Below, one piece after another: positions 108 to 19,925 of a stretch of DNA of 19,925 bases. The notes under the pieces were generated by a model. That model did not search any database and was not told the origin of the DNA. It saw nothing but the letters and a program-made list of their open reading frames with translations. Both the position numbers and the translations under genes were made by a program. Source of the DNA: an uncultured Lachnospiraceae bacterium. GTDB lineage: Bacteria > Bacillota_A > Clostridia > Lachnospirales > Lachnospiraceae. Positions within the stretch are counted from its first letter, which is position 1. Each line of letters opens with the position of its first letter. The stretch is from assembly GCA_947564305.1 (NCBI GenBank), contig CANOBT010000102.1:1-19925 (forward strand), in the 5' to 3' direction.

Positions 108-188
108 GGCGAAAGCCCGCAGCGAGGCGAAGCCGAGCTGGCACGGCGGAGTGGAGAGAAAATACAGAAACTAACTGCCCGCAGGAAG
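108..188. repeat. Direct repeat, copy 2, running into the RBS of the next gene
   Basis: This is the second copy of the repeat at 1-81, identical over its first 55 bases and then diverging. Its 3' edge overlaps the purine-rich stretch AGGAAGAGG that serves as ribosome-binding site for the ATG at 197. The reading frame stays open through the repeat from a GTG at 44, but that upstream part looks like translated repeat (basic, Arg-rich), so it was not taken as coding. Confidence 0.8.
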
Positions 189-196
189 AGGAAACC

Positions 197-2805: not shown

Positions 2806-4149
2806 ATGAAAAAGGTGATTACATACGGCACCTTCGATCTCTTGCATGAGGGACATTACCGTCTTTTGGAGCGGGCGAAGGCATTGGGAGATTACTTGAT
2901 CGTCGGTGTCACCTCGGAGGCTTATGACAAGGCGAGAGGGAAACTGAATGTGATAGATTCTCTGGCGACGCGAATTGAAAATGTGAGAAAGACAGGCTTT
3001 GCCGATGAGATCATCGTGGAGGAATCTCATGGGCAGAAGGTGCAGGATGTCAAGAAGTACAAGATTGATATTTTTACGGTAGGCTCTGATTGGACAGGCA
3101 CATTTGACTATATGAAGGACTACTGTCAGGTGGTTTATCTGGAAAGGACAAAAAATATTTCCAGTACCATGCTGCGGGTACAGAATAAGCGGATTCACAG
3201 AATCGGGATAATCGGTACGGGGCGGATTGCAGAGCGGTTTGTCCCGGAAGTCAAACTGGTCAGCGGCATTACCACACAAGGGTGTTACAATCCGCATGTG
3301 GAGAGCGCAAAGCGGTTTGCCGAAAGATGGGAAATTGAGGCATATGAAGATATAGAGAGTTTTTATGAGGCAATGGATGCAGTCTATATCGCGTCGCCTC
3401 ATGAGACACATTATGAGTATATTAAGTCAGCGCTGGAGCACGGCAAGCATGTACTCTGTGAGAAGCCCATGGTGCTGAAAGCCGCGCAGGCGGAGGAGCT
3501 GTTTCGCTATGCGAGAGCGCATGAACTGATTTTGTTTGAGGGAATAAAGACCGCGTACTGTCCTGGATTTAATAAGCTCCTGGGGGTTGCCTGCAGCGGC
3601 ATCATCGGGAGTATAAGAAATGTGGAAGTGTGCTTTACCAAGCTGGAAAACCCGGATAACCGGGAATTGACTGACCGGAAGTATGGTGGCAGCCTGACGG
3701 AGCTTGGCAGCTATGTGATGCTCCCCATATTAAAACTTTTTGGAGAAAATTACGACGACATTCGTTTTGATGTAATCAGAGGAGAGAATGGGCTGGATCT
3801 GTTTACAAAAATTTCAGTCAGCTATGCCAACGGCATTGCAACGGCCACCTGTGGGTTGGGCGTGAAGTCTGAGGGAAGACTTTTGATTGCCGGGACTAAG
3901 GGATATATGATTGCGGAGGCGCCCTGGTGGAAGACATCCTATTTTGAGGTGCACTATGAAAACCCGTTGGAGGTGGAAAAGTACTCCGAACGTTTTCTGG
4001 GAGAGGGTCTGCGGTATGAGATCAGTGATTTTCTTTCCATGATGAACGGCAGGAACAGCAGCGAATTTAAGCTGACTAGGAGCGAGTCGGTGGCGCTTGC
4101 CGATATCATGGAGAAGTTTTTGAAAGCGGAGGGGCGCGTAGAGAAATAG
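2806..4149 (+). CDS. Glycerol-3-phosphate cytidylyltransferase fused to Gfo/Idh/MocA oxidoreductase
   Basis: This two-domain protein has 447 aa. Residues 1 to about 128 match the TagD/GCT nucleotidyltransferase family: TYGTFDLLHEGH near the start holds the HxGH CTP-binding motif, and RTKNISST near residue 114 matches the RTxGIST signature. Such enzymes make CDP-glycerol from CTP and glycerol 3-phosphate. From about 130 a Gfo/Idh/MocA oxidoreductase begins, with GIIGTGRIAERF as the dinucleotide loop and CEKPM near 218-222, whose Lys is the usual catalytic residue of the family. ATG 2806 lies behind a GGAG in the 50-base gap after the glycerophosphotransferase-like gene. Both halves look intact. 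The oxidoreductase substrate is unknown; fusion suggests it acts on the cytidylyltransferase's substrate or on the same polymer. The N-terminal call is firm at family level, but the exact alcohol phosphate is inferred from the neighbours. Confidence 0.85.
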   Translation: MKKVITYGTFDLLHEGHYRLLERAKALGDYLIVGVTSEAYDKARGKLNVIDSLATRIENVRKTGFADEIIVEESHGQKVQDVKKYKIDIFTVGSDWTGTFDYMKDYCQVVYLERTKNISSTMLRVQNKRIHRIGIIGTGRIAERFVPEVKLVSGITTQGCYNPHVESAKRFAERWEIEAYEDIESFYEAMDAVYIASPHETHYEYIKSALEHGKHVLCEKPMVLKAAQAEELFRYARAHELILFEGIKTAYCPGFNKLLGVACSGIIGSIRNVEVCFTKLENPDNRELTDRKYGGSLTELGSYVMLPILKLFGENYDDIRFDVIRGENGLDLFTKISVSYANGIATATCGLGVKSEGRLLIAGTKGYMIAEAPWWKTSYFEVHYENPLEVEKYSERFLGEGLRYEISDFLSMMNGRNSSEFKLTRSESVALADIMEKFLKAEGRVEK

Positions 4150-4220: not shown

Positions 4221-4952
4221 ATGAAAATTTGGGCGCACAGAGGATGCAGTCAGCGATATCCTGAAAATACGATGCTTGCCTTTGAAAAGGCGGCGGAACT
4301 AAAGGGGCTGACGGGGATCGAATTGGATATACAGCTCACAAAGGACGGGGAGATCGTCGTGATTCATGATGAGAGAGTGGACAGGACGACGGAGGGAGCC
4401 GGGTATGTGAAGGATTTTACACTTTCGGAACTAAAAAGACTGCATATTTACGCAGACGAAAATCCGGCGCAGTCCATTCCGACCATTAATGAAGTGCTTG
4501 ATCTGCTGCAGGATAGAATGAAGGGCGGATTAAAGCTCAATATAGAACTGAAAAACAGCGTGAATCCCTATGAGGGGATGGAAGAAAAGATCGTGGAGCT
4601 GATCGGGCGGTACGGTTTGCAGGAGAATATTGTCTATTCTTCGTTTTACGCGCTGTCTCTGGAAAAGCTGCGGGAGATAGAGCCGCAGGCGGAGATCGGG
4701 ATTCTGGATACTAAGGTTTCTGACTGCTTGTATAAAGGGAAGGGCGGATGCGGCGCAAAGGCCTTGCATCCTTGCTGGCAGGGAATTGATTTGTCACCTG
4801 AAAAATTACAGGGATATACGGTGCGGGCATGGTTTTCCGGGCATCTGTATCCTGAGAAGCCGACGGGGACGAAGCTCGATTTGGATGTGTTGGAGAAGCG
4901 TGGAATTACGGATGTGTTTTTGAACGAGCCGGAGCGGTATTTGCTGGTTTGA
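4221..4952 (+). CDS. Glycerophosphodiester phosphodiesterase
   Basis: This 243-aa GDPD family protein would hydrolyse glycerophosphodiesters to glycerol 3-phosphate and an alcohol. Its N-terminal catalytic signature is complete: H6-R7-G8, PENT at 14-17, E34-x-D36 and H49-D50, the usual metal ligands and general acid/base pair. KLNIELKN in the middle matches the third conserved strand. The C-terminal end (GITDVFLNEPE) departs from the common ITDxP ending. There is no signal peptide, so it acts in the cytoplasm. AGGAG lies 7-8 bases before ATG 4221, and the gene follows the cytidylyltransferase fusion by 71 bp, probably in the same transcript. It may recycle glycerol phosphate from lipid or teichoic-acid-like material. 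Confidence 0.9.
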   Translation: MKIWAHRGCSQRYPENTMLAFEKAAELKGLTGIELDIQLTKDGEIVVIHDERVDRTTEGAGYVKDFTLSELKRLHIYADENPAQSIPTINEVLDLLQDRMKGGLKLNIELKNSVNPYEGMEEKIVELIGRYGLQENIVYSSFYALSLEKLREIEPQAEIGILDTKVSDCLYKGKGGCGAKALHPCWQGIDLSPEKLQGYTVRAWFSGHLYPEKPTGTKLDLDVLEKRGITDVFLNEPERYLLV

Positions 4953-7026: not shown

Positions 7027-7069
7027 ATTTGGTTAAGTTCAACTTGTTCGACAAGAAAAAGGAGACATG

Positions 7070-7966
7070 ATGACAGATTATCAGAAGATACGGGATGCAA
7101 TTGAGCGGTCACTTAATTCAGAAAAAAGTAATTTTATCATCTATCCGTATGGAGAATACGGCGTGTTGGCAAAGCGGATTCTAAACGACAGTTTTGGGAT
7201 AGTAGAAGATTATGTGATTGACAACAGGCTTTCCCAATATAACAGTAGTATCAAGAATTTGGATTTTTTCAAGGAGTTGGACAGCAGTAAATATACCGTT
7301 TTGTTTACTTGTGCGAATCCGGACATATATGACGAGGCGTTACAACCTTTAAAGCAGTTTTTTGACGCAGACCAGATTATAGATATATTTAGTAGTAATT
7401 TCGAAGAGAGAGGGGTAACATGTCGCGGAAAATATAGCTATGGCCCATTGTGCGATCATTGGTTAGTGGAATCGGTTGGGGCGTTTTGTAGCTTTGCAGA
7501 GGGGACTGATGTTGTAGAGAATCATGCTGTTGGCTATATATCTACGCATCCATTCTTATATTTAGGTGGCATAGCGGATACAATTCGGGAGAAAAGATGG
7601 GATGAGTGGAGAGGGAGTGAAATTTATTTTGAGGGAGTTGCACCTAAAGGAGAAAATTATAAGTTAAAGCGAATACATGTTGGGAATGATGTGTGGTTAG
7701 GAAAAAACGTTTTGATTACAAATAGTGCGGATATCGGTAACGGAGTTATTGCGGGAGCGGGTGCTGTCATAACAAAAGATGTCCCAGACTATGCTGTAGT
7801 TGCAGGGAGCCCGGCTCGAATTATTAGATATAGATATACACAGGAGCAGATTATAGCATTAAATAGAATTGCATGGTGGAATTGGTCTGATGAAAAAATA
7901 AGGGAATGCTATGATGATTTTTTTGAAGAAGTAGAAGTGTTCATTAATAAACATAAGGATGATTGA
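7070..7966 (+). CDS. Rossmann-like domain + CatB/Vat-type hexapeptide acetyltransferase
   Basis: Of the paired ATG codons at 7067 and 7070, the second sits 5 bases after GGAG and is preferred; the first would have a spacing of 2. The N-terminal ~110 residues form a Rossmann-like unit (NFIIYPYGEYGVLAKRIL, then DYVIDN). From about 125 to the end is a left-handed beta-helix acetyltransferase of the xenobiotic/CatB type: H152 in VENH is in the place of the catalytic His, and THPF, VGNDVWLGKNV, IGNGVIAGAGAV and AGSPARIIR are typical. It probably O- or N-acetylates a sugar of the glycan from acetyl-CoA. It is the first gene of the AT-rich operon and precedes the SDR gene by 21 bp. The fusion resembles PglD-like sugar acetyltransferases in layout. 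Confidence 0.85.
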   Translation: MTDYQKIRDAIERSLNSEKSNFIIYPYGEYGVLAKRILNDSFGIVEDYVIDNRLSQYNSSIKNLDFFKELDSSKYTVLFTCANPDIYDEALQPLKQFFDADQIIDIFSSNFEERGVTCRGKYSYGPLCDHWLVESVGAFCSFAEGTDVVENHAVGYISTHPFLYLGGIADTIREKRWDEWRGSEIYFEGVAPKGENYKLKRIHVGNDVWLGKNVLITNSADIGNGVIAGAGAVITKDVPDYAVVAGSPARIIRYRYTQEQIIALNRIAWWNWSDEKIRECYDDFFEEVEVFINKHKDD

Positions 7967-7987: not shown

Positions 7988-9052
7988 ATGAATTATTACA
8001 AGACAAAATTATATAAAGCAGAAATCAAAAAGAATATAGAACATAATAATATGCTGCAGGTGCTTAGCGGAAAAGTGTGTGTTGTTACAGGAGCGCGGGG
8101 GATGATCGGAAGCGAACTGATTGATACGATTATGTTTGCAAATCAATACTATGGTTTAAATTGTAAGGTCTATGGCATAGTCCGAAATATGTCGGTGGCT
8201 TCTGAACGGTTTCATTCATTTATTAATGATGATTTCTTTGAATTGATACAGGCTGATATTAATACGGATTTTATTCGTGTTAATGAGAATGTTGATTATA
8301 TTATTCATGGAGCAAGCAATACGCATCCGGTCTATTATGCGACACGTCCAATAGAAACAATACTTACCAATACTGTCGGGACAAGTCGTGTTCTGGAATT
8401 TGCTTCGGAGCATAAATGCCAAAAGTTTATTTTTTTATCTTCGGTTGAAGTGTACGGCGAGAATAGAGGAGATGTAGATAAGTTTACTGAAGATTATTTG
8501 GGATATTTAGACTGTAATACTCTTAGAGCTGGCTACCCGGAAGGGAAAAGAGTGGGGGAGGCATTGTGTCAGGCATACATAGAGGAGAAAAATCTGGACT
8601 GCATAATACCAAGAATATCAAGATGCTATGGCCCTGGGCTTCTAAATGAGGATTCCAAGGCGCTGTCACAATTTATTCATAAGGCGGTAGACAGAGAAGA
8701 TATTGTATTAAAAAGTAAAGGGAACCAATTATACTCTTATATTTATGCGGCGGATGTAGTTAGTGCAATTTTGTTTCTTATTTCGAGTGGACAGAGGGGA
8801 GAAGCGTATAATCTCTCAGGTATTGAATCGGATATTACGCTCGCAGAATTGGCAGATTGTGTTGCTGCCATTGCTGGCACAAAAGTAATCTATGATATAC
8901 CTGATGAAAAGGAGGCGGCAGGATACTCTAAGGCGACGAAAGCTTTGTTAGATACTTCGAAGATAGAAAGTCTTGGGTGGCATTCGCGTTATTCAGTTAA
9001 AGAGGGAATTAGAAGAACGTTAGAAATGCAGGGATACTATTTGGGGGAGTGA
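7988..9052 (+). CDS. NAD-dependent epimerase/dehydratase (extended SDR)
   Basis: This 354-aa extended short-chain dehydrogenase/reductase has an unusual ~28-residue lead before the Rossmann fold. The NAD loop is G35-A-R-G38-M-I-G41, and the active site is S151-S152 with Y183-x3-K187. LSSVEVYG and YPEGKRVGEAL are close to UDP-glucuronate decarboxylase (UDP-xylose synthase) and dTDP-glucose 4,6-dehydratase relatives. These act on nucleotide-linked sugars, with a transient 4-keto intermediate. The ribosome-binding site is weak, so coupling to the previous gene is likely. The next gene, an IspD/TarI-type cytidylyltransferase, starts 2 bases after its stop, so it could reduce, epimerise or decarboxylate a CDP-linked or phosphorylated pentose. 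A UDP- or dTDP-sugar substrate is the conservative alternative. Confidence 0.8.
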   Translation: MNYYKTKLYKAEIKKNIEHNNMLQVLSGKVCVVTGARGMIGSELIDTIMFANQYYGLNCKVYGIVRNMSVASERFHSFINDDFFELIQADINTDFIRVNENVDYIIHGASNTHPVYYATRPIETILTNTVGTSRVLEFASEHKCQKFIFLSSVEVYGENRGDVDKFTEDYLGYLDCNTLRAGYPEGKRVGEALCQAYIEEKNLDCIIPRISRCYGPGLLNEDSKALSQFIHKAVDREDIVLKSKGNQLYSYIYAADVVSAILFLISSGQRGEAYNLSGIESDITLAELADCVAAIAGTKVIYDIPDEKEAAGYSKATKALLDTSKIESLGWHSRYSVKEGIRRTLEMQGYYLGE

Positions 9053-9053
9053 G

Positions 9054-9755
9054 ATGAATACAGCAATCGTAATTGCGGCGGGTGTAGGACAGAGAACAGG
9101 ACAGTGTGTACCGAAGCAGTTTATCAATGTATTGGATAAACCTATCATAGCCTATACTTTGGAGAAATTTCAAAAATCGGAAAAGATAGACAGTATAGAA
9201 GTGGTTTGTCTGAAAGGTTGGGAAGAAGTTTTAAAAGTTTACGCCCTACAATATGGCATCGCAAAATTGAAATGGATCGTTACGGGTGGAAACAGCAGCC
9301 AGGAATCCATATACATAGGACTGAAATATCTGGAGGATATTTGTGGGGAAGGAGATATTGTAGTGATCCATGATGGGATCAGACCGATGGTTGAAGAGGA
9401 TATCATCGATTCGTGTATCGATATCTGCCAAATACGAGGTAACGGCATTACGGCGCTTCCTGTTTACGAACAGATTTTTAAAGCTGATAATGGAGAATCG
9501 TCAAAGGAGTATATTCCCAGAGACAGTTTAAAGGTTTTACAGACGCCGCAGGCTTATAAATATAGTGAAATAAAGAAGGCGTATGATGAGGCTTTTGCAA
9601 AAGGAATAGGGATTCAAGGATCAGCGTATGCGAATACGATGATGGCTGAGTTGGGCAATACGCTCTACTTTTCAAAAGGTTCGACCAAAAATATAAAGAT
9701 TACGACAAAAGATGATATAGAAATTTTCAAAGCTATGTTGAGGATGGAAGAATGA
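9054..9755 (+). CDS. IspD/TarI-type cytidylyltransferase
   Basis: This 233-aa protein belongs to the family that joins CMP from CTP to 2-C-methyl-D-erythritol 4-phosphate (IspD) or D-ribitol 5-phosphate (TarI). AAGVGQR (8-14) with P20-K21-Q22 is the CTP-binding signature, HDGIRP (106-111) the second motif, LQTPQAY the dimer/acceptor loop and NIKITTKDD the C-terminal metal-binding segment. GGGGGAG precedes ATG 9054, and the stop overlaps the LicD start as ATGA. IspD for isoprenoids is normally a housekeeping gene outside glycan loci, and here the neighbours are LicD and a DXS-like protein. A cell-surface alditol or deoxypentose phosphate is therefore the more likely substrate. The sequence alone does not separate IspD from TarI. 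Confidence 0.85.
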   Translation: MNTAIVIAAGVGQRTGQCVPKQFINVLDKPIIAYTLEKFQKSEKIDSIEVVCLKGWEEVLKVYALQYGIAKLKWIVTGGNSSQESIYIGLKYLEDICGEGDIVVIHDGIRPMVEEDIIDSCIDICQIRGNGITALPVYEQIFKADNGESSKEYIPRDSLKVLQTPQAYKYSEIKKAYDEAFAKGIGIQGSAYANTMMAELGNTLYFSKGSTKNIKITTKDDIEIFKAMLRMEE

Positions 9756-10567
9756 TAGAATTGGATGCGACAACACTTCGAAAGCTCCAGATGACTGAGC
9801 TTGAGATGTTAAAGGAAGTGGATAGGATATGTAGAAAATATGATATTAAGTATTCTCTCGACGGCGGAACATTGTTGGGCGCAATACGGCATAACGGCTT
9901 TATTCCGTGGGATGATGACGCAGATGTTGTAATGTTAAGACCTGAGTATATTAGATTTTACAAAGCATGTAAGAAGGAGCTGGATAAGGATAAGTTTTTT
10001 CTGCAGGATTTTAGGACAGATTTGGACTACCGATGGGGGTACTCTAAAATGCGCAGAAATGGAACAGTCTTTTTGAGGGAGGGACAGGAGCATGGTAAAT
10101 GGAACCAAAGCGTATTTATAGATATTTTTGTGTACGATCAAGTGCCGGATTCAAAAATACTTCGGAGGATTCATTTGCTAATCTGTTTTTGTATCAGGAA
10201 GGGATTGTACGCAGAGGTTGGCAGGAAAAGCGCCTCAAACGGACTTTTCAGAAAGCTATACCAGTTGCTCTATATAATTCCACGGGACAGATGGGTCAGA
10301 CAACTTGAAAAGATGGCAGAGATTACAAGCAGGAAAAGGACAGAGCTTGTCAGACATATGACTTATCCATATAGAAAGGAATGTCGATATGGGTTGCCCA
10401 GAGAGTGTTTTGACGAGTACATAGATAAGGAATTTGAAGGTTTTAAATTTAAAATATTTAAAAACTATGATCTATATTTAACAAGGTTATATGGTGATTA
10501 TATGATACTGCCGCCAGTGGAGAAAAGAAAAGTACATCCGGTGAGTAAGATTAAGTTAATAGATTGA
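9752..10567 (+). CDS. LicD family phosphotransferase
   Basis: This 271-aa LicD protein has the family core at residues 37-58: DGGTLLGAIRHNGFIPWDDD with the D54-D55-D56-x-D58 metal cluster. LicD enzymes move a phospho-alcohol from a CDP donor (phosphocholine, or ribitol phosphate in the fukutin/FKRP relatives) onto a glycan. It overlaps the cytidylyltransferase by ATGA, so donor synthesis and use are translationally coupled. That makes the neighbour's CDP product the probable donor. No choline kinase or choline cytidylyltransferase (LicA/LicC) is seen in the window, which argues against phosphocholine. The C-terminus is basic, with no membrane helix. Confidence 0.88.
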   Translation: MIELDATTLRKLQMTELEMLKEVDRICRKYDIKYSLDGGTLLGAIRHNGFIPWDDDADVVMLRPEYIRFYKACKKELDKDKFFLQDFRTDLDYRWGYSKMRRNGTVFLREGQEHGKWNQSVFIDIFVYDQVPDSKILRRIHLLICFCIRKGLYAEVGRKSASNGLFRKLYQLLYIIPRDRWVRQLEKMAEITSRKRTELVRHMTYPYRKECRYGLPRECFDEYIDKEFEGFKFKIFKNYDLYLTRLYGDYMILPPVEKRKVHPVSKIKLID

Positions 10568-10578
10568 AAGGTGAGAAT

Positions 10579-11781
10579 ATGTCAAATTTGGAAGAACAGA
10601 TTGAAAAGGAAAAACAGAGGTATTTAGATTATGCCGACCGGAATAGTGATAAGCGAATATATATTTATGGGGCGGGAAAACAGGCGGTTCCGATTGCCGA
10701 TTTTTATAAAAAGAACAACGTTTCGATAGATGGATTCTGTGTCACAGACCGATCGAGTAACAGAAAGAATATCAATGGAATGCCGGTATATCAGGTGGAT
10801 GAGCTCCCTCATGCAGATGCTGCGTTTGTATTTGGGGTGAGGGTTCAGCTAAATGATGAAATAGAGAAGATATTGAAAGAAAATGGCTATACTAATTTTT
10901 TGCCGGCATCAAATTTGATTCGCTATTTAGGGGAATATGGGTACAGCTTCTATACAAGTCCCATGATTGAAATTACAACGAAGCTGGGATGTGCGGTAAA
11001 TTGTAAATTTTGTCCACAAGAGTTATATATTAAGGAATATTTAAAAGAAGGAAATCCAGATACCGTATTATCTTTCGAAAATTATAGAATATGTATCGAT
11101 AAATTGCCGGAAAATACAATTGTTGAATTTGCTGGATTTACGGAACCTTTTTTTAATGCAAGGTGTATGGAGATGATTCAATATGCGAAAAACAGAGGGC
11201 ATAGAGTAAATTTATTTACGACGCTCCGGGGATTGAAATTGGATCAGATAGATCAACTGCTGGAGATCGAATTTGAGGAGTTCGTTCTGCATGTTCCGGA
11301 TCGTGAAGGTTATGCTGTTATTCCTGTGGATGAAGAGTATAGGGAAATTATAAAAAGATTAAGCGTGGCAAAGAAGCCAAATGGAAACAGTTTCATTGAT
11401 TACGCCTGCGCGCAGGGGACGGTGGAGGATGAGATAACAGAACTGCTGGGAAACGATATTAGAATTTATGTGGTTCTCAACGATAGGGCAGGAAATTTGC
11501 AGGATAGCTGTCTGTATGGAAAAAAGGGAATTCGTGGCAGGATAAGGTGTGAACTTTCAAAAGATATTAACCATAATGTTTTACTGCCGGACGGGCGGGT
11601 GATTCTGTGCTCGAATGATTGGGGATTAAAGCATGTCATGGGGAATCTGATACACGAGACATATGAGCAGATTCTGGACGGTGACGAGGCGAATAGAATA
11701 AGAGAGGCGATGATGAACGAAGGCGGCGCATTCGTTTTGTGTAGAAACTGTTTTCAGGCAATATGCGAGGGAGATTTTTAA
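10579..11781 (+). CDS. Rossmann-like domain + radical SAM/SPASM-type protein
   Basis: ATG 10579 follows AAAGGTGAG and is preferred over an in-frame TTG at 10564 that overlaps the previous gene; the product has 400 aa. Residues ~24-120 form a Rossmann-like unit (RIYIYGAGKQAVPIADFY, then GFCVTD). The radical SAM core starts near 128, with C138-x3-C142-x2-C145 for the [4Fe-4S] cluster that cleaves S-adenosylmethionine. The C-terminal part has a SPASM-like stretch (LPDGRVILCSNDW...HVMGNL) and CRNC plus another Cys near the end, probably ligating a second cluster. No precursor peptide gene is seen. Its place between LicD and the DXS-like gene suggests radical chemistry on a sugar or alditol of the glycan, such as epimerisation, dehydration or deoxygenation. 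The reaction cannot be named. Confidence 0.8.
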   Translation: MSNLEEQIEKEKQRYLDYADRNSDKRIYIYGAGKQAVPIADFYKKNNVSIDGFCVTDRSSNRKNINGMPVYQVDELPHADAAFVFGVRVQLNDEIEKILKENGYTNFLPASNLIRYLGEYGYSFYTSPMIEITTKLGCAVNCKFCPQELYIKEYLKEGNPDTVLSFENYRICIDKLPENTIVEFAGFTEPFFNARCMEMIQYAKNRGHRVNLFTTLRGLKLDQIDQLLEIEFEEFVLHVPDREGYAVIPVDEEYREIIKRLSVAKKPNGNSFIDYACAQGTVEDEITELLGNDIRIYVVLNDRAGNLQDSCLYGKKGIRGRIRCELSKDINHNVLLPDGRVILCSNDWGLKHVMGNLIHETYEQILDGDEANRIREAMMNEGGAFVLCRNCFQAICEGDF

Positions 11782-13545
11782 ATGTACATAGAAAAAATCG
11801 ACAGTCCAAAAGATTTGAAAAAGCTGAATGTAGAGCAGTGTGTTGTTTTAGCAGATGAAATACGATATGCGCTTTTGCATGCCATTAGCGCGACAGGGGG
11901 ACACCTTTCTTCCAATTTGGGAATTGTGGAAGCGACGATAGCGTTACACTATGTATTTGATTCCCCAACAGATAAGATCATTTTTGATACTTCGCATCAA
12001 TGCTATACACATAAAATACTTACAGGGCGAAAAGATGCATACTTAGAACCAAAGCAGTATAAAAAGTATTCCGGCTATACAAACCCGGACGAGAGCGTAC
12101 ATGATTATTTTAAACTGGGTCACACTTCAACGTCAATTAGTTTGGCTTGTGGCTTGGCAAAGGCAAGAGATTTGAGAGGAGATAAAGAAAATGTAATAGC
12201 CGTTATAGGAGATGGTTCACTAAGCGGTGGAGAAGCATTCGAGGGATTAAATTTCGGTGGCTCTGAGATAAGGGGAAATCTAATCATTTTGTTTAATGAT
12301 AATCAAATGTCAATTGCAGAAAATCATGGGGGAATGTACGAGAGCATAAATGCGCTTCGTATGTCCAAAGGCGAGACACCGAATAATATCTTTCGGTTTT
12401 TGGGATATGAATATAAATACATCGGAGATGGAAATGATCTTATGAACCTGATACCGATTTTTCAGCAGATTAAGGATATTGACCATCCGATTGTACTGCA
12501 TATGTGCACTATGAAGGGGAAGGGTTATGATGTATCCGAACAAAAAAGGGAAGAAACACATTTTGTTAAGTCATTTGATTTGAAACTGGGTGATGTTCAA
12601 CAAAAAATTGCGGGCGAGAGATATGATCTGATTGTCAGAGATTTTTTGCTTGAAAAGATGAAGGCGGATAGAAACGTTGTGATAATGACGGCGGCAATGC
12701 CTGTTACACTGTCCTTATCAGAAGAGCTGAGAAAACAGATTGGAGAGCAGTACATAGACGTTGGGATTGCGGAAGAGCATGCAATATCAATGGCGGGAGG
12801 AATTGCCAGAAATGGCGGAAAGCCTGTATTTTTTACCAGATCGACCTTCTTCCAGAGAGCCTATGACCAGATATCACAGGATGTATGTATCAATAAACTT
12901 CCGATTACCATGATACTGATTAATTCATCTGTTTATGCTGCTACGGATATGACGCATATTGGCACTTTTGATATTGCCATGATGTCAAATATTCCGAATC
13001 TTGTAATGCTGGCGCCGACCAATAAAGAGGAATATCTGGCAATGCTTGATTGGAGTATTGAGCAGGACGAGTATCCTGTGGCAATACGACCGCCAAGAAA
13101 CGGTATATATCATGCCGACTATGAGGTTAACAGGGATTATAGTGTGATCAATAAATTCCAGATGACGATTCAGGGAGAAGAAATAGCAGTAATAGCGTTA
13201 GGTGATTTTTATCAATTAGGTGAAGAAGTTATTAAATTGATCCGAGATGAAATTCATGTAAATGCCAGTCTGATTAATCCAAGATATGCGTCGGGAATTG
13301 ATGAAATACTGTTGAACGAATTATCCGAGACTCATCGCATTATCATTACGTTAGAGGATGGGATACTGGAGGGAGGATTTGGACAGAAAATTTCGGCATT
13401 TTATGGGAATACCGGTGTAAAGGTCTTAAATTATGGGTTAAAAAAGGAATTTGTAGATTTTTATGATACACGGGAAATCTTGGGAAGGAATAGATTAAAG
13501 CCAAACTTAATTGTAGAAGATATCATGAGACAAATACAGCGGTGA
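11782..13545 (+). CDS. 1-deoxy-D-xylulose-5-phosphate synthase-like transketolase, divergent paralog
   Basis: This 587-aa thiamine-diphosphate enzyme has DXS architecture. It keeps H41 and H72 (SHQCYTHKILTGR), the ThDP motif GDG (143-145)...N157, NDNQMSI, the cofactor-activating E331 in AEEHA, and FFQRAYDQ. DXS joins pyruvate and glyceraldehyde 3-phosphate. Compared with E. coli DXS as recalled, the substrate region differs: Tyr392 is Arg353, the DRAG motif with Arg420 is N381-S382-S383, and the following loop is one residue shorter (TDMTH). The equivalents of Arg398 (R359), Asp427 (D389), His431 (H392) and Arg478 (R439) remain. It lies directly after the radical SAM gene (start abuts the stop), in a glycan operon with no IspC homologue. 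It probably supplies a 1-deoxy-ketose phosphate or related ketose for the glycan rather than isoprenoids. Plain DXS activity with redirected product remains possible. Confidence 0.85.
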   Translation: MYIEKIDSPKDLKKLNVEQCVVLADEIRYALLHAISATGGHLSSNLGIVEATIALHYVFDSPTDKIIFDTSHQCYTHKILTGRKDAYLEPKQYKKYSGYTNPDESVHDYFKLGHTSTSISLACGLAKARDLRGDKENVIAVIGDGSLSGGEAFEGLNFGGSEIRGNLIILFNDNQMSIAENHGGMYESINALRMSKGETPNNIFRFLGYEYKYIGDGNDLMNLIPIFQQIKDIDHPIVLHMCTMKGKGYDVSEQKREETHFVKSFDLKLGDVQQKIAGERYDLIVRDFLLEKMKADRNVVIMTAAMPVTLSLSEELRKQIGEQYIDVGIAEEHAISMAGGIARNGGKPVFFTRSTFFQRAYDQISQDVCINKLPITMILINSSVYAATDMTHIGTFDIAMMSNIPNLVMLAPTNKEEYLAMLDWSIEQDEYPVAIRPPRNGIYHADYEVNRDYSVINKFQMTIQGEEIAVIALGDFYQLGEEVIKLIRDEIHVNASLINPRYASGIDEILLNELSETHRIIITLEDGILEGGFGQKISAFYGNTGVKVLNYGLKKEFVDFYDTREILGRNRLKPNLIVEDIMRQIQR

Positions 13546-13613: not shown

Positions 13614-14714
13614 ATGAAATTTTCAATCGTAACGGTTTGTTTGAATTCAGCAGACACAATTAGGCAGACGATAGAGAGCGTTGTACATCAGCAGAACGAG
13701 AATATTGAATATATCATAATTGACGGAGGGTCTACGGATGGCACTGTAGATATTATAAAAGAATATGGCGATGAAATTTCATTTTGGGTAAGTGAAAAAG
13801 ATAACGGATTATATGATGCCATGAATAAGGGGATAGTAAAGGCGTCTGGAGATGTGATATCTTTGCTCAATTCTGACGATTGGTATGAACCAAATATTCT
13901 GGAAAGAGTGAAAGAGTATTTTGAGACTTATAAAGTTGATATGGTGTGTGGAAGTGTAAGAAACATCTTAGACAATGAAGAATTTGGAATAACAGCACCT
14001 AGGTATGATTTGGGCGAGCTCCATCTTAGAGTACAATGCATGCCGCCGGCATTATTTTGTAGAAAAAGTGTTTATGATCAGATAGGACTCTTTAATACGG
14101 AGTTTAAGATAACGTCCGATTTCGAATGGGAAATGAAAGTATGGCAAACGGGATTATCCTGTTACAATGCCGCCGATATTTTTACAAACTTTCGGCTGTC
14201 AGGAACATCCGGACAAAGGAAATACCTGGCCATGTTAGAAAATTACGAGATAGCGAATCGATATTTGACTCCCAAGTATCAAAAGGAAGTCGATACATTT
14301 TATTCTGAGAGGCTCGAAAGTTGCTTTTATGAGCAGAGTTTTGAAGAACAATTTAAAAATATTGATAAAAATGTTTTGTTAAATATTTTTGGTGATGAGG
14401 AGCTTTATATATGGGGAACGGGGATTCAAGGCGCCTTGTGTTTACATACGATGGAACAACTGGAACTTAAATGCGCTGGTTTTGTAGACAATGATAAAAG
14501 AAAATGGAACAGCAAAATTAAGAACTATCTAATTTACGAGCCAGTTAAACTGGATAAAAGTATAAAGATATGTATTGCGGCGCGTGAGTATAATACACAG
14601 ATCAAAGAGCAGTTAGTGGATTTGGGATATTTACCTGATAGATATGTGGAGTTTTCCGAAGTAATGAAGCAGGCGGTAATGAAGGAGACTGGTATTAGAT
14701 ATATGGTCGATTAG
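13614..14714 (+). CDS. GT2 glycosyltransferase with C-terminal Rossmann-like domain
   Basis: The first ~230 residues are a GT-A fold family 2 transferase: MKFSIVTVCLNS, IDGGSTDGT, then NSDDW in place of the DxD motif that binds the metal and nucleotide sugar. Residues ~262-350 are a separate Rossmann-like unit (LYIWGTGIQG, then GFVDND). A 68-base gap lies upstream, with GAGGG before ATG 13614; no clear promoter is visible in it. It would add a sugar to the growing lipid-linked glycan on the cytoplasmic side. Donor and linkage cannot be read from the sequence. Confidence 0.88.
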   Translation: MKFSIVTVCLNSADTIRQTIESVVHQQNENIEYIIIDGGSTDGTVDIIKEYGDEISFWVSEKDNGLYDAMNKGIVKASGDVISLLNSDDWYEPNILERVKEYFETYKVDMVCGSVRNILDNEEFGITAPRYDLGELHLRVQCMPPALFCRKSVYDQIGLFNTEFKITSDFEWEMKVWQTGLSCYNAADIFTNFRLSGTSGQRKYLAMLENYEIANRYLTPKYQKEVDTFYSERLESCFYEQSFEEQFKNIDKNVLLNIFGDEELYIWGTGIQGALCLHTMEQLELKCAGFVDNDKRKWNSKIKNYLIYEPVKLDKSIKICIAAREYNTQIKEQLVDLGYLPDRYVEFSEVMKQAVMKETGIRYMVD

Positions 14715-14787: not shown

Positions 14788-16044
14788 ATGAAAGTATTGT
14801 GGTTATGTAATATAGTACTGCCGGAATATGCAGAAGAATTTGCATTGAAACCAACAGTTGTTGAAGGATGGCTAACCGGAATGTTACATCAGATGGAAAA
14901 GAAGGTAGAAATCGCGCTTTGCTTCCCTATTATTGATTTATGGAGAAAGAAAGATGGAGAATTAAATGGACATAAATTCTATTCCTTTTCCTATTCGGAT
15001 TATGAATACAGTACAGAAACAGAAGAAAGATTTGCAGAAATATTAAATGATTATCAGCCAGACATCGTACATATTTGGGGAACTGAATTTCCGCATACTT
15101 TGGCAATGATAAATTCCTGTGAAAAAATGAGGATTTTAGATAAAGTACTTATTAATATTCAGGGTCTGATTGAGCCTTGCAGTCAGTATTATTTAGATCA
15201 TATATCAGAAGAATATATCGACGAAGAAAATGAGCTTGGTGATTCGCTGCGCAAGGCGCAGGAGGAATTTCAGGTTCGTGGTAGGTATGAGAGAGAAGCA
15301 TTGAATAAAGTTAAATACGTAATTGGAAGAACAGATTGGGATTGCGCGTGGGTAAAACATATTAATTCTAATATTATTTATTATTGTGTAGGAGAGATAT
15401 TACGGGATGAGTTTTATGAGAAAAGAAGGACTTGGTCGTATGAAATGTGTGAAAAGCATTCAGTATTTGTCAGCCAGGCAGGATATGCGATTAAAGGACT
15501 TGATTATTTATTGCGCGCAATGCCTGACATTATTAAAGATTATCCAGATGCACATGTTTATATTGCGGGGACAAATCCAATGGTGAACAATCCAAGATCG
15601 GGATATATAACACCATATGGCGTTTTCTTAAAAAACATAATTAGCGAATTGAACTTACAGGATAATGTGTCCTTTTTAGGACGTCTTAATGCTAAGCAAA
15701 TGATACAGATGTATTTAAAAGCAAATGTGTTTGTCTCTTGCTCCAGAATAGAAAATTCTCCCAATTCAGTTTGTGAAGCAGCAATTATAGGGACTCCGAT
15801 TGTGTCATCTTATGTAGGGGGAATTGAGAATTTGGCTGAAAAAATTACAAATATTTATCTGTATCAGCCTGGCGTGGAATATATGCTTGCATTTTATATA
15901 AAAAAAGTGTTTAAAACTGATAAGTTTGCAATTCATTCAAATAAAATTCTGGAATTTATGGATAGGCAGAATAATATGGAGACTACATGGAAAATTTATC
16001 AGGAATTGTGTAAAAAAAGGGAATCAGAGGGAGAAGATCAATGA
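14788..16044 (+). CDS. GT4 family glycosyltransferase (GT-B fold)
   Basis: This 418-aa retaining GT-B transferase has an N-terminal domain containing HIWGTEFPH. Its C-terminal domain has YVYIAGT-type and FLGRL strands and the EX7E motif, E322 to E330 (ENSPNSVCE). That is followed by GTPIVSSYVGGIENL, typical of GT4 sugar-donor sites. ATG 14788 has only a distant AAAGG, so the ribosome-binding site is weak, after a 73-base gap. The stop overlaps the next start as ATGA. Unlike both neighbouring transferases it has no attached Rossmann-like module. The sugar is unknown. Confidence 0.88.
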   Translation: MKVLWLCNIVLPEYAEEFALKPTVVEGWLTGMLHQMEKKVEIALCFPIIDLWRKKDGELNGHKFYSFSYSDYEYSTETEERFAEILNDYQPDIVHIWGTEFPHTLAMINSCEKMRILDKVLINIQGLIEPCSQYYLDHISEEYIDEENELGDSLRKAQEEFQVRGRYEREALNKVKYVIGRTDWDCAWVKHINSNIIYYCVGEILRDEFYEKRRTWSYEMCEKHSVFVSQAGYAIKGLDYLLRAMPDIIKDYPDAHVYIAGTNPMVNNPRSGYITPYGVFLKNIISELNLQDNVSFLGRLNAKQMIQMYLKANVFVSCSRIENSPNSVCEAAIIGTPIVSSYVGGIENLAEKITNIYLYQPGVEYMLAFYIKKVFKTDKFAIHSNKILEFMDRQNNMETTWKIYQELCKKRESEGEDQ

Positions 16045-17303
16045 ATGTTGCAACAATTCTTTTTACTTATAATCGCAGCAAACATACACGACAGGTTCTT
16101 GACGCATTGAGCAGAAACACAGTTTTACCTGATAAACTTTATATTTTTCAGGATGGACCAAAAAGAACTACAAATCAAAAAGAGTGGAAAGCTGTCAGTG
16201 ATGTAATAAATGCTGTTTCATGGTGTGATACAGAAATAGTCATATCGAACTATAATAAAGGATTGGCAAATTCTATAAAATCTGGTGTGAGTCAGGTGCT
16301 TCAATTATATGATGCTGTGATTGTATTAGAAGACGACTGTGTACCTCATCCGCAATTTATGGAGTATATGGTAAAAGCATTGGAAAAATATGAATCCAAG
16401 AAAGAGGTGTATCATATAGGGGCATCATCCGAGCCAGTAGAAGTAAACGAAAATGGAACATGCGCCTATTTTTTGGGAAGAGCAAATTCATGTGGCTGGG
16501 GGACTTGGAAGGATAGGTGGGAACAGTTTAATAACGATTATACTCTTTTGGTAAAGATAAAGTCAGATTCACAATTAAATGAATGGTTTCAATTATGGGC
16601 AGAAGATACAGAATCAGCCATTTTAGGGAATATTGAGGGCACAACTGATTCATGGGCAGCATTTTGGGTACTTACTATAATTATGAACAAGGGATATTGC
16701 ATGTCGCCATATGAGTCTTTCATTACGAATATTGGTTATGATAATAGTGGAAGACATTCTGGGGCGGCTCAGCCGGAATTGAAGATTCGTTCGGATGAAA
16801 ATCGAACCGAAATTATTTTGCCGGATAAGATTGAATTTGTTGATAATTATAAAAAATCTTTTGCGAACTATTATCCATGGACCAATCCGATAATAAAGAA
16901 TGCGTATTATAGAGATGTGGCTTTGGATTTGCTGGAAATATCTCAAAAAAATATTAGCATGGCTGACTACCTGAAAAAATATGGAATACAGAAAATTGCA
17001 ATATGGGGCAGAGGAAGAATAACAACATATCTGATTGAGGCGCTAAAGACCGAAATTGAAATATTGGCGATTACGGAAACACATCCGGCAGGGGACAAGT
17101 ATGAGGAGATACCTTTAATTTCATGGAGAAAGTTGCAAGAGGATATTCCCTTAATTATAGTTATTCCGGGGTTTGATGCTGAGCGGATTAAAAGCACTCT
17201 TGAAGAGATTCATTTAGAAGATCGTGCTATTTCCATTGGGGAGCTGACGGATGTAATATTGCGTAGTGAGGAGAAAGAAGGATCAAGGCGACGTGAAAAA
17301 TAA
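16041..17303 (+). CDS. GT2-like glycosyltransferase (EDD motif) with C-terminal Rossmann-like domain
   Basis: This 420-aa GT-A fold protein begins with ATILFTYNRSKH and has E97-D98-D99 (VLEDDC) as its metal/nucleotide motif. LGRANSCGWGTWKDRW follows near 150, as in bacterial transferases related to GNT-I/MGAT1 (GT13-like) and hypothetical sugar transferases. Residues ~315-415 form the additional Rossmann-like unit (KIAIWGRGRITTYLIEA). There the usual Asp at the end of strand 2 is not obvious (LAITETH). It is coupled by ATGA to the GT4 gene and overlaps the deacetylase gene. It probably adds one residue of the same glycan. Confidence 0.8.
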   Translation: MNVATILFTYNRSKHTRQVLDALSRNTVLPDKLYIFQDGPKRTTNQKEWKAVSDVINAVSWCDTEIVISNYNKGLANSIKSGVSQVLQLYDAVIVLEDDCVPHPQFMEYMVKALEKYESKKEVYHIGASSEPVEVNENGTCAYFLGRANSCGWGTWKDRWEQFNNDYTLLVKIKSDSQLNEWFQLWAEDTESAILGNIEGTTDSWAAFWVLTIIMNKGYCMSPYESFITNIGYDNSGRHSGAAQPELKIRSDENRTEIILPDKIEFVDNYKKSFANYYPWTNPIIKNAYYRDVALDLLEISQKNISMADYLKKYGIQKIAIWGRGRITTYLIEALKTEIEILAITETHPAGDKYEEIPLISWRKLQEDIPLIIVIPGFDAERIKSTLEEIHLEDRAISIGELTDVILRSEEKEGSRRREK

Positions 17304-18213: not shown

Positions 18214-19326
18214 ATGAAGAAAGTTTTTGTTTTTGGAAGAGGAAGTCTGTATAAACAAAAGGAAAAGTATATTAAGAGAACTTATAACGTGCAGGGCTTT
18301 GTGGATAATGCGGTTAGCAGGGATAATGAAATGGATGTGGAGAGTGGTTTACCTGTTATCCATCCGGAGCAGATTAGTCAATATTTAGACGAGGATGTGA
18401 AGATAATTTTAATGTCAACACAGTATGTTTCCATGTGGAAACAGTTAAGTAAGTTGGGAATTGAAAAACATAGAATCCTGTTTGGAATTATATTTCCACC
18501 GCTTATGGATGGCGAAGATGTTTTATTTGGAGATGGAGGAAGTATAGTGGCAGAAGAGTGTGGAGGTGTCTGCTATTTAAATTGTGCTAAAAAGATAGAC
18601 GTGGAGAGCCATAAGCAGTTATTAGAAAAGGTGCAGGATATTCTGAGAGAACGGTATAAAAGAAAATATCCTATTATTGATGCAATTTCACAAATGGATA
18701 CTGAGCCGGTCAGCAGAAAATTTGGCACGGAGAGAGGAACGGCGATAGATCGATATTATATTGAAAAATTTCTTGAGAAAAATAGGGGGCTTATACATGG
18801 TGATTGTATTGAAATCGCTGAAAATACATATACGCTGCGTTACGGAGAAAACAGGGTGAAAAACGCATATATTCTACATGTAAAAGGCTGGGGAGAGAAT
18901 GCGATAAAAGGGAATCTGGAAACGGGAGAGGGAATCAGGGAAAATCAATATGACTGTGCCGTTATTACGCAGACATTAATGTTTATTTATGATCTTAGAG
19001 AGACAGCGAGAAATATATATAAAATGCTTAAGCCGGGGAGCAATGCGTTGCTTACGGTTGCTGGTATATCCCAGATATCACGTTATGATGCAGAACTTTG
19101 GGGAAGTTATTATGGGTTCCATGAAGATGCAGTAAAGGCATTGTTTGAACCGGAATTTGGCAGCGAAAATGTTATGGTAGACACATATGGGAATGTAAAG
19201 ACGGCAATTGGTTTATTGTGTGGACTGTGCAGAGAGGACTTAAAGGAGGAAGATTTTATTTTCCAGGATAAAGATTATCCGGTAATTATCACGGCGTTAC
19301 TGCATAAGGAGGAAGAAGTTAAATGA
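18214..19326 (+). CDS. Rossmann-like domain + class I SAM-dependent methyltransferase
   Basis: ATG 18214 directly follows the deacetylase stop, behind GGAAGGGG. Residues 1 to about 95 are the Rossmann-like unit (KKVFVFGRGSLYKQKEKY, then GFVDNA). After a linker, residues ~165-365 resemble a methyltransferase type often found among glycosyltransferase genes: RKFGTERGTAIDRYYIEKF, then a SAM loop CIEIAENTY in place of the usual GxGxG, and YDCAVITQTL. An MLKPG strand follows. It probably methylates a sugar hydroxyl of the glycan. The overlap with the next methyltransferase gene (ATGA) suggests the two act together. The SAM loop is atypical, so activity is inferred. Confidence 0.75.
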   Translation: MKKVFVFGRGSLYKQKEKYIKRTYNVQGFVDNAVSRDNEMDVESGLPVIHPEQISQYLDEDVKIILMSTQYVSMWKQLSKLGIEKHRILFGIIFPPLMDGEDVLFGDGGSIVAEECGGVCYLNCAKKIDVESHKQLLEKVQDILRERYKRKYPIIDAISQMDTEPVSRKFGTERGTAIDRYYIEKFLEKNRGLIHGDCIEIAENTYTLRYGENRVKNAYILHVKGWGENAIKGNLETGEGIRENQYDCAVITQTLMFIYDLRETARNIYKMLKPGSNALLTVAGISQISRYDAELWGSYYGFHEDAVKALFEPEFGSENVMVDTYGNVKTAIGLLCGLCREDLKEEDFIFQDKDYPVIITALLHKEEEVK

Positions 19327-19925
19327 ATTATATCGGCGCACTGGAAACGGATAGTGAACTTATTAATAGCAATAAAGAATATCTAATTTACGGAGGGGCA
19401 GGAGGATATGGAGAAAAAATATACCGAAATATGGAACTATATGGGAAGCAGGGTAATGTCAAAGCATTCATAGATAGAGAACCAGCCAGATGGGGAGATA
19501 CGTTGCATGGTATTCCTGTCCTCAGTATAGAGAGGGCAAAGGAAGAATACAGGGAAGCGGTTATATGCATTGGAGGTGAAGTAGAAGAAAATATAAAAGA
19601 TATTGAATTGCTACAGGGAATGTTAAATATTCATCAAATTATATTTAATAGAAAATGCAAAATGTATGGAACAGAGTATGGAGGATTTTATCTGCCGGAG
19701 AGTGTTGTGATAAAAAATGCCGTTGTATATTCATTTGGTATTGGGGAGGATTTGTCATTCAGTGAAGCTATCATTAAGGCGGGAGGAAAAGTTTTTGCGT
19801 TTGATCCCACGCCCAAAGCGATAAAATTTGTGGAAAATCATAGATTGTTTTCTCATCCTAATTTCCGCTTTTTCCCGTATGGATTATCTGACAGAGACGA
19901 AGCAGAAAAGTTTTTCTTGCCAAAG
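19323..19925 (+). CDS. Rossmann-like domain + FkbM-like methyltransferase (cut by window end)
   Basis: The gene starts at ATG 19323, overlapping the previous stop as ATGA, and is still open after 201 residues at the window edge. Residues ~19-110 are the Rossmann-like unit (YLIYGGAGGYGEKIYRNM, then AFIDRE and HGIPVLSIE). From about 125, YGGFYLPE, VVYSFGIGEDLSF and VFAFDPTPKAI are typical of the N-terminal half of FkbM-family SAM methyltransferases, which O-methylate sugars or polyketides. The catalytic C-terminal half is not in the window, so intactness cannot be judged. It is the second methyltransferase in a row, with the same module order as the first. Confidence 0.78.
   Translation, partial: MNYIGALETDSELINSNKEYLIYGGAGGYGEKIYRNMELYGKQGNVKAFIDREPARWGDTLHGIPVLSIERAKEEYREAVICIGGEVEENIKDIELLQGMLNIHQIIFNRKCKMYGTEYGGFYLPESVVIKNAVVYSFGIGEDLSFSEAIIKAGGKVFAFDPTPKAIKFVENHRLFSHPNFRFFPYGLSDRDEAEKFFLPK

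What the first reader, a model, noticed from the sequence alone, without database searches (positions are those of the whole stretch)
7988..13545. DXS-like, IspD-like, SDR and LicD genes together: candidate CDP-(deoxy)pentose or pentitol phosphate glycan pathway
Homologues of two early MEP-pathway enzymes (DXS and IspD) lie in a glycan operon, but the enzyme between them (IspC) has no homologue here. LicD, which uses CDP donors, overlaps the IspD-like gene. The DXS paralog keeps ThDP motifs but changes acceptor-pocket residues (Arg353 at the Tyr392 position, Ser382 at Arg420, a one-residue loop deletion). IspD/SDR pairing recalls Haemophilus Bcs1/Acs1, which makes CDP-ribitol by ribulose 5-phosphate reduction and cytidylylation. 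A ThDP carboligase making a 1-deoxy-ketose phosphate, then activation and LicD transfer, would be a new kind of decoration. The product is inference.
Basis: partly seen in the sequence, partly recalled or inferred. Interest (0 to 1): 0.8.

Follow-up and report, generated by a model that had tools for sequence, protein, structure and literature searches.

The report
DXS paralogue in CDP-polyol glycan locus
A bacterial surface-sugar gene cluster joins a repurposed relative of an isoprenoid-pathway enzyme to genes that look able to make and attach CDP-activated sugar alcohols, which may point to an unusual deoxygenated sugar-alcohol phosphate decoration, but the product has not been shown.

Summary
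The genes are real: SDR, IspD-like, LicD, a radical-SAM/SPASM gene and a DXS paralogue form one tight run. The DXS-like protein is in subfamily PRK12315 ("DXS2"), a clade apart from housekeeping DXS. R420 of the glyceraldehyde-phosphate pocket is kept in 0 of 181 DXS2 rows; the 22 nearest homologues all have Arg392, Asn420 and Arg478. The SDR is structurally closest, by about 5 Z units, to the Campylobacter CDP-fructose-to-CDP-glucitol reductase, so the likely order is CDP-ketose first, reduction second, not the Bcs1 order. DXS2 beside IspD and SDR recurs in three other genomes with different gene orders. All four DXS2 fall in one clade, and those three genomes have separate housekeeping DXS, IspC and IspD. 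Best reading: a CDP-polyol-phosphate cassette (LicD or TagF as transferase) that recruited DXS2, most likely to make a 1-deoxy-ketose phosphate. The polyol half is well supported; the DXS2 step is inference. Against it: closely related IspD-SDR pairs occur in genomes where only housekeeping-type DXS was found, so DXS2 may make something else. The window's own genome is not held, and no chemistry was tested.

The parts
7988..9052 (+). Extended SDR (PF01370), predicted CDP-ketose reductase
9054..9755 (+). IspD-like cytidylyltransferase, predicted to make a CDP-ketose
   Evidence: Pfam IspD 130.1 bits; below the NCBIfam cut-offs for IspD (164.3 vs 181.3) and for ribitol-5-P cytidylyltransferase (124.3 vs 166); outside the housekeeping IspD clade
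9752..10567 (+). LicD-family transferase, predicted to transfer the polyol phosphate from the CDP donor
   Evidence: Pfam LicD 142.5 bits, cut-off 22.6; 4-base overlap with the IspD-like gene
10564..11781 (+). Radical-SAM/SPASM protein with CxxxCxxC at residue 143, role unknown; travels with DXS2
   Evidence: PF13186, motif; next to DXS2 also in L048; 11 same-length contigs shared with DXS2 homologues
11782..13545 (+). DXS2: PRK12315-type ThDP carboligase paralogue with an altered acceptor pocket
   Evidence: NF008968 844.4 bits, cut-off 510; clade apart from housekeeping DXS 100/100; pocket residues
7067..7966 (+). Hexapeptide acyltransferase-like protein, upstream neighbour, probably same operon
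   Evidence: Hexapep 24.2 bits, below the Pfam cut-off of 27; best NCBIfam match 100.1 bits, below its cut-off; 21-base gap to the SDR
13614..14714 (+). Family 2 glycosyltransferase, downstream neighbour
   Evidence: PF00535 109.4 bits; 68-base gap after DXS2

Best explanation
A CDP-polyol-phosphate cassette inside a surface-glycan locus, with a recruited DXS paralogue as its front end. Proposed order: (1) DXS2, with ThDP, joins the two-carbon unit of pyruvate to an aldose phosphate and gives a 1-deoxy-2-ketose phosphate (inferred); the acceptor could be glyceraldehyde 3-phosphate or a longer aldose phosphate, perhaps ribose 5-phosphate where an RpiB gene sits in the set. (2) The IspD-like enzyme and CTP turn the ketose phosphate into a CDP-ketose (inferred from HS5.18/Mnp1). 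(3) The SDR reduces it with NADPH to a CDP-alditol (inferred from HS5.17, strong structural match). (4) LicD here, TagF-type enzymes in relatives, transfer the alditol phosphate to the glycan (inferred from the families). The radical-SAM protein goes with DXS2 in one lineage and may modify the same intermediate (open). Shown here: gene content, paralogy, pocket changes, recurrence, fold. Not shown: any reaction.
Against: IspD-SDR pairs of the window's own IspD clade lack a linked DXS2 in L105, L106, L107, L098 and L101 (L101 ends at the contig end just after the SDR start). G185 and G646 gave only housekeeping-type DXS matches. Among IspDs the DXS-linked ones are scattered (4 changes, as many as shuffled labels), and I found no pocket residue shared only by them. 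Housekeeping DXS already makes DXP, so a second DXS would be redundant if the product were plain DXP. 12 of the 19 HS5.17 ligand-contact or neighbouring residues checked differ, among them the cytosine contact D212 (Q) and the phosphate contact R233 (Y). L052 has DXS2 without the IspD/SDR pair. Unbiased DXS2 searches show that most DXS2 genes are not in such loci: 2 of 39 loci and 0 of 13 carry IspD and SDR.
Confidence: 0.45

Rival explanations
1. The SDR, IspD-like and LicD genes alone make and attach an ordinary CDP-polyol (from fructose 6-phosphate, ribulose or xylulose 5-phosphate), while DXS2 and the radical-SAM protein make a different building block or modification of the same glycan.
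For: IspD-SDR-LicD or -TagF occurs without DXS2 in most loci examined: of 33 IspD loci fetched, 20 have an SDR within 3.2 kb and 1 of the 33 has DXS2. Lactobacillus plasmids carry LicD-IspD-SDR with no DXS gene annotated in the stretch. L048 IspD has the same motif (YNEQIF) as DXS-less relatives. rSAM and DXS2 keep together.
Against: DXS2 of this clade sits with IspD-SDR in 4 of 5 genome-located cases (window included), with unrelated IspD branches and with or without rSAM, which suggests coupling to the CDP-polyol chemistry itself.
Confidence: 0.28
2. DXS2 of the glycan clade acts on a CDP-linked keto sugar: it adds a two-carbon branch from pyruvate (as the unrelated ThDP enzyme YerE does for yersiniose, recalled), and the SDR reduces the branched product.
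For: R420, R99 and mostly D427 are lost, so the acceptor need not be glyceraldehyde 3-phosphate. L052, in the same clade, sits with genes of the CDP-glucose 4,6-dehydratase and sugar-1-phosphate nucleotidylyltransferase kind, a second ThDP enzyme and a short SDR. All five genome-located members lie in loci with nucleotide-sugar genes.
Against: DXS-type enzymes are known for aldehyde acceptors; Arg478 is kept in the window's relatives, which suits a small phosphate. L052 has its own acetolactate-synthase-like enzyme for such a step.
Confidence: 0.15
3. Ordinary: extra DXS and IspD copies that boost isoprenoid (lipid carrier) supply for glycan export.
For: NCBI models name both proteins as MEP enzymes; DXS2 passes one DXS equivalog cut-off (NF003933, 632.2 vs 395) and misses TIGR00204 by under a bit (465.2 vs 465.95).
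Against: No IspC in the cluster; IspD-like proteins lie outside the housekeeping IspD clade (100/99), below the IspD cut-off and lack D139, T140 and T189 kept by the 7 housekeeping IspDs; DXS2 lacks R420 and R99; complete housekeeping genes exist in the three relatives.
Confidence: 0.05
4. DXS2 here is inactive or keeps only a structural role.
For: Several canonical pocket residues are lost.
Against: H49, N181, H299, E370, R398 and H431 are kept in all 181 rows; the reading frame is intact; the signature R392/N420/R478 is fixed in 22 of 22 nearest homologues.
Confidence: 0.05

Closest known systems
C. jejuni HS:5 HS5.18/HS5.17 CDP-6-D-glucitol pathway (PMC10918830; abstract, section 19, part 1 of section 22 and passages read)
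   Same: IspD-family cytidylyltransferase plus PF01370 SDR side by side in a glycan locus; SDR with N-terminal helix; best structural match
   Different: No DXS2, no radical-SAM gene described in what I read; 30% SDR identity over 305 aligned positions, 12 of 19 checked residues differ; substrate there is fructose 6-phosphate
S. pneumoniae 35A Mnp1/Mnp2 CDP-mannitol pathway (passages in PMC10918830)
   Same: CTP plus ketose phosphate, then reduction of the CDP-ketose; PF01128 plus PF01370 pair
   Different: No DXS2 mentioned; sequences were not compared here
TarI/TarJ and Haemophilus Bcs1/Acs1 CDP-ribitol routes
   Same: CDP-pentitol for polyol-phosphate glycans; IspD-family cytidylyltransferase
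   Different: Reduction comes before cytidylyl transfer (reference title in PMC10918830); TarJ-like partner is another reductase family; window IspD scores 124.3 against a 166 cut-off for that model
ISPD with FKTN/FKRP (PMC4873967, passages read)
   Same: IspD-family enzyme makes CDP-ribitol for LicD-domain transferases
   Different: Eukaryotic, no DXS paralogue
DXS2 / PRK12315 subfamily, PDB 9kpq (no paper found)
   Same: Same subfamily, 715 bits
   Different: 9kpq has Tyr at 392, Gly or Trp near 420 and Ala at 478 by the printed alignment, unlike the window; its function is not known to me

Membership tests
DXP synthase (housekeeping DXS) | ThDP and catalytic residues H49, N181, H299, E370, H431 (labels partly recalled) | tested here: met
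   all kept
DXP synthase (housekeeping DXS) | Glyceraldehyde-phosphate pocket Y392, R420, R478 (PMC11019550, passages) and R99 | tested here: not met
   window: R353, N381, R439, K91; only R478 kept. Housekeeping 5 of 5 keep all four; of 7 one has Lys at 478
DXP synthase (housekeeping DXS) | In the housekeeping clade | tested here: not met
   separate, 100/100
PRK12315 (DXS2) subfamily | NF008968 above cut-off | tested here: met
   844.4 vs 510
IspD (MEP cytidylyltransferase) | Model cut-off TIGR00453 | tested here: not met
   164.3 vs 181.3
IspD (MEP cytidylyltransferase) | CTP/catalytic R20, K27, D106, R109, R157, T165, K213 (roles recalled) | tested here: met
   all identical
IspD (MEP cytidylyltransferase) | D139, T140, T189 (kept in 7 of 7 housekeeping rows) | tested here: not met
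   E, Q, A in the window
TarI ribitol-5-phosphate cytidylyltransferase | NF001183 above cut-off | tested here: not met
   124.3 vs 166
CDP-ketose reductase (HS5.17/Mnp2 type) | N-terminal helix before the Rossmann fold; closest fold | tested here: met
CDP-ketose reductase (HS5.17/Mnp2 type) | YxxxK, E140, R164, Y295 | tested here: met
   Y183/K187, E154, R180, Y313
CDP-ketose reductase (HS5.17/Mnp2 type) | CDP and polyol contacts S100, Q196, D212, T227, R233 | tested here: not met
   P, R, Q, S, Y, so it works like one but is not filed as the same enzyme
CDP-ketose reductase (HS5.17/Mnp2 type) | NADPH reduction of a CDP-ketose | not testable with these tools
   needs enzyme assay
LicD family | PF04991 above cut-off | tested here: met
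   142.5 vs 22.6
Bcs1/Acs1 bifunctional CDP-ribitol synthase | IspD and reductase fused in one protein | tested here: not met
   two separate genes, 1-base gap
Aminoethylphosphonate pathway with IspD-like cytidylyltransferase | PEP mutase in the cluster | tested here: not met
   no such Pfam match among the 17 window proteins scanned

The most novel reading that the evidence does not exclude
Bacteria build a glycan with 1-deoxy-alditol phosphates: a neofunctionalised DXS makes 1-deoxy-ketose phosphates (C5 from glyceraldehyde 3-phosphate; C7 from ribose 5-phosphate where RpiB is present), an IspD relative turns them into CDP-1-deoxyketoses, an SDR reduces these, and LicD or TagF transfers the deoxy-polyol phosphate. 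The first two enzymes of the isoprenoid route would thus have been rebuilt as a cell-surface pathway.
Probability: 0.35. Interest if true: 0.82.

Novelty: new variant of a known kind. Interest (0 to 1): 0.6.

Why it matters
If true, ThDP-made 1-deoxy sugars would have a fate outside isoprenoids, thiamine and vitamin B6, and polyol-phosphate glycans would gain a new donor class. Independently of that, the data mark DXS2 (annotated everywhere as DXP synthase) as a family whose acceptor pocket is not that of DXP synthase, so many genome annotations and metabolic models that count it as an isoprenoid enzyme are doubtful. The operon offers three or four purified-enzyme tests that would settle it.

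Tried and rejected

Rows dropped before counts: in the DXS tables ORFs under 450 residues were not taken, so L051, L081 and the fragment L082 are absent, and L061 and L160 were left out of trees; 35 of the 36 places with E at or below 1e-140 were fetched, plus the fragment (the unfetched one is in L003). L002 and L083 are one gene. From the 82-row tree I also removed L005, L008 and L141 as long branches. From the IspD tree L124_11590, L153 and L099 were removed. P0001 is the window's own protein and is counted with it in the 181 rows.
Full report
What is there. The run 7988-13545 holds five genes on the + strand, not four: SDR, IspD-like, LicD, a radical-SAM/SPASM protein and a DXS-like protein, with gaps of 1, -4, -4 and 0 bases. 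It lies in a glycan locus: a hexapeptide acyltransferase-like protein before it (below the Pfam cut-off), and three glycosyltransferases and a polysaccharide deacetylase after it. GC falls from about 0.49 in the first 5 kb to 0.34-0.40 beyond 7 kb. No genome is held for the window, so all genome-level tests were made in relatives.

The DXS-like protein. It matches PRK12315 (NF008968) at 844.4 bits, cut-off 510; it also passes one DXS equivalog model (632.2 vs 395) and just misses TIGR00204 (465.2 vs 465.95). Its best solved relative is 9kpq (715 bits); I found no paper on it. In a tree of 56 rows the DXS2 rows are apart from seven housekeeping DXS (100/100). Catalytic residues are kept in all 181 DXS2 rows, but R420 is kept in 0, and R99, R420 and R478 together in 0 of 181. 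PMC11019550 (passages read) names R420, R478 and Y392 as the conserved glyceraldehyde-phosphate pocket and reports that R478A has a very high Km for that substrate. The window reads R353 (392), N381 (420), T388 (427), R439 (478), K91 (99). Of the 120 best homologues listed (a capped list from 7,980, P0001 being the window's own), the 22 nearest all have R392, N420 and R478, and all 120 have R478; of 56 other DXS2, 1 has R478 and none R392. Thus this sub-clade has a re-tuned, still partly basic acceptor pocket.

Recurrence. A DXS2 search of 397 Lachnospiraceae-type genomes (family of a Lachnospira genome) gave 36 places at E 1e-140 or better; I fetched 35 of them, one fragment, and three more loci (39 loci, two of them the same gene). 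Two, L048 and L072, have IspD and SDR next to DXS2. An IspD search of 391 Clostridia-type genomes gave 33 places in 31 genomes; one, L125, has IspD, SDR and DXS2. A search of 398 genomes of the phylum gave six more DXS2 loci, and one of 237 genomes of G761's family gave 13 more beside G761 itself: none of those 13 has the pair, and among 50 DXS2 genes tested within 4.5 kb the IspD, SDR and TagF-type families appear only in L048, L072 and L125. The orders differ: window SDR-IspD-LicD-rSAM-DXS2; L048 TagF-IspD-SDR-rSAM-DXS2; L072 TagF-IspD-RpiB-DXS2-SDR; L125 TagF-RpiB-IspD-SDR-DXS2. The four DXS2, with L052, are one clade (100/98; again in the quick tree, where 16 homologues of unknown context join it). 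L052 has no IspD-SDR pair but sits with nucleotide-sugar genes: a GDP_Man_Dehyd-type dehydratase, a nucleotidyltransferase, an acetolactate-synthase-like enzyme, an HMGL-like aldolase, a short SDR and a flippase (the names RfbF/RfbG are my reading). Independent support: homologue lists for DXS2 (120), rSAM (87) and IspD (120) share exactly equal longest-contig lengths in 11 (DXS2-rSAM), 10 (DXS2-IspD) and 8 (rSAM-IspD) cases, six of them for all three, against 0.23, 0.30 and 0.32 expected with jittered lengths. Equal length is indirect evidence of one contig and does not show adjacency.

Housekeeping copies. G342, G186 and G761 each have one IspC, one DXS matching the N-terminal domain end to end besides DXS2 and an IspD scoring higher than the cluster copy. 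Their housekeeping DXS and IspD fall in the housekeeping clades.

The IspD-like protein. It is below the cut-offs for IspD and for ribitol-5-phosphate cytidylyltransferase. In a 54-row tree the glycan-locus IspDs are apart from seven housekeeping IspDs (100/99), and the window is in a seven-member clade with SDR-linked IspDs (99/98). D139, T140 and T189, shared by the housekeeping rows, are E, Q and A here; R20, K27, D106, R109, R157, T165 and K213 are kept (roles recalled).

The transferase. LicD-domain proteins transfer the phosphate with the polyol (PMC4873967, passages), and LicD homologues are proposed for ribitol phosphate in Enterococcus (PMC7188991, passages). L048, L072 and L125 use Glyphos_transf (TagF-type) proteins instead: Pfam-confirmed for L048 and L072, by BLAST for L125. 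Of 33 IspD loci, 20 have an SDR within 3.2 kb, and 15 of those 20 also a LicD or TagF-type gene; of the 13 without SDR, 12 have LicD or TagF-type and 3 a TarJ-like reductase (labels from BLAST best hits, TarJ by my reading).

How it most likely works. Cassettes of this kind often bring their own supply gene: ribulose-phosphate 3-epimerase in L164, RpiB in L072 and L125. DXS2 fits as another supply gene that gives a 1-deoxy-ketose phosphate. In L072 and L125 the pocket has Asn or Gly at 392 and Trp at 478, and an RpiB is present, which would suit a longer acceptor such as ribose 5-phosphate; the window and L048 have two Arg and no RpiB. This last step is inference.

What speaks against it. IspD-SDR pairs in the window's IspD clade occur where DXS2 was not found: G185 and G646 gave only housekeeping-type matches; G631 gave one 38% match of unclear type. 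DXS-linked IspDs are scattered in the IspD tree and share no pocket mark. G342 has a second IspD-SDR pair (L101) without a second DXS2. DXP is already made by the housekeeping enzyme. So DXS2 may serve a separate branch of the glycan. Most DXS2 genes outside this clade are not in such loci and their role is unknown.

Verdict. Observation real, with two residue details corrected and one gene added. Interpretation partly supported: CDP-polyol cassette likely (about 0.75 by my judgement), DXS2 as its supply enzyme about even. Best explanation as a whole 0.45.

Noticed in passing
window 2806-4149: Fusion of a glycerol-3-phosphate-cytidylyltransferase-like domain with a GFO_IDH_MocA oxidoreductase, next to a GDPD-family gene (4221-4952); 77% alike in L048. 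It looks like a second, unrelated CDP-polyol module in the same locus.
   Followed up: partly
window 110-2755: An 881-residue frame with no Pfam match, conserved as a piece in L048 (39%).
   Followed up: no
L164:7286-10977: Parabacteroides distasonis plasmid-labelled record: IspD, SDR, ribulose-phosphate 3-epimerase and a CDP-glycerol glycerophosphotransferase in a row, suggesting a CDP-pentitol made from a pentulose phosphate.
   Followed up: partly
L052:8910-17178: DXS2 of the same clade beside an acetolactate-synthase-like enzyme, an HMGL-like aldolase, a short SDR and nucleotide-sugar genes: two ThDP enzymes in one glycan locus.
   Followed up: partly
L122:8136-12411: IspD-like gene with aminotransferase, a split ThDP-enzyme frame and LicD; looks like a phosphonate-type decoration.
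   Followed up: no
L001:6089-9758: Two DXS2 genes in tandem in Selenomonas artemidis; no match covering the whole DXS N-terminal model was listed for G001 or G004, so DXS2 may be the only DXS there.
   Followed up: no
L049-L083 and other stand-alone DXS2 loci: Among 50 DXS2 genes, families that I read by eye as MerR regulators (9 loci) and flavodoxins (7 loci) recur within 4.5 kb; stand-alone DXS2 may have a redox or stress link.
   Followed up: no
window 7067-7966, 10564-11781, 13614-14714, 16041-17303, 18214-19326, 19323-19925: By eye, several proteins carry a similar Rossmann-like add-on ('IYGAGKQA', 'YIWGTGIQG', 'VFVFGRGSL'), as if a shared domain is stitched to many enzymes of the locus.
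   Followed up: no
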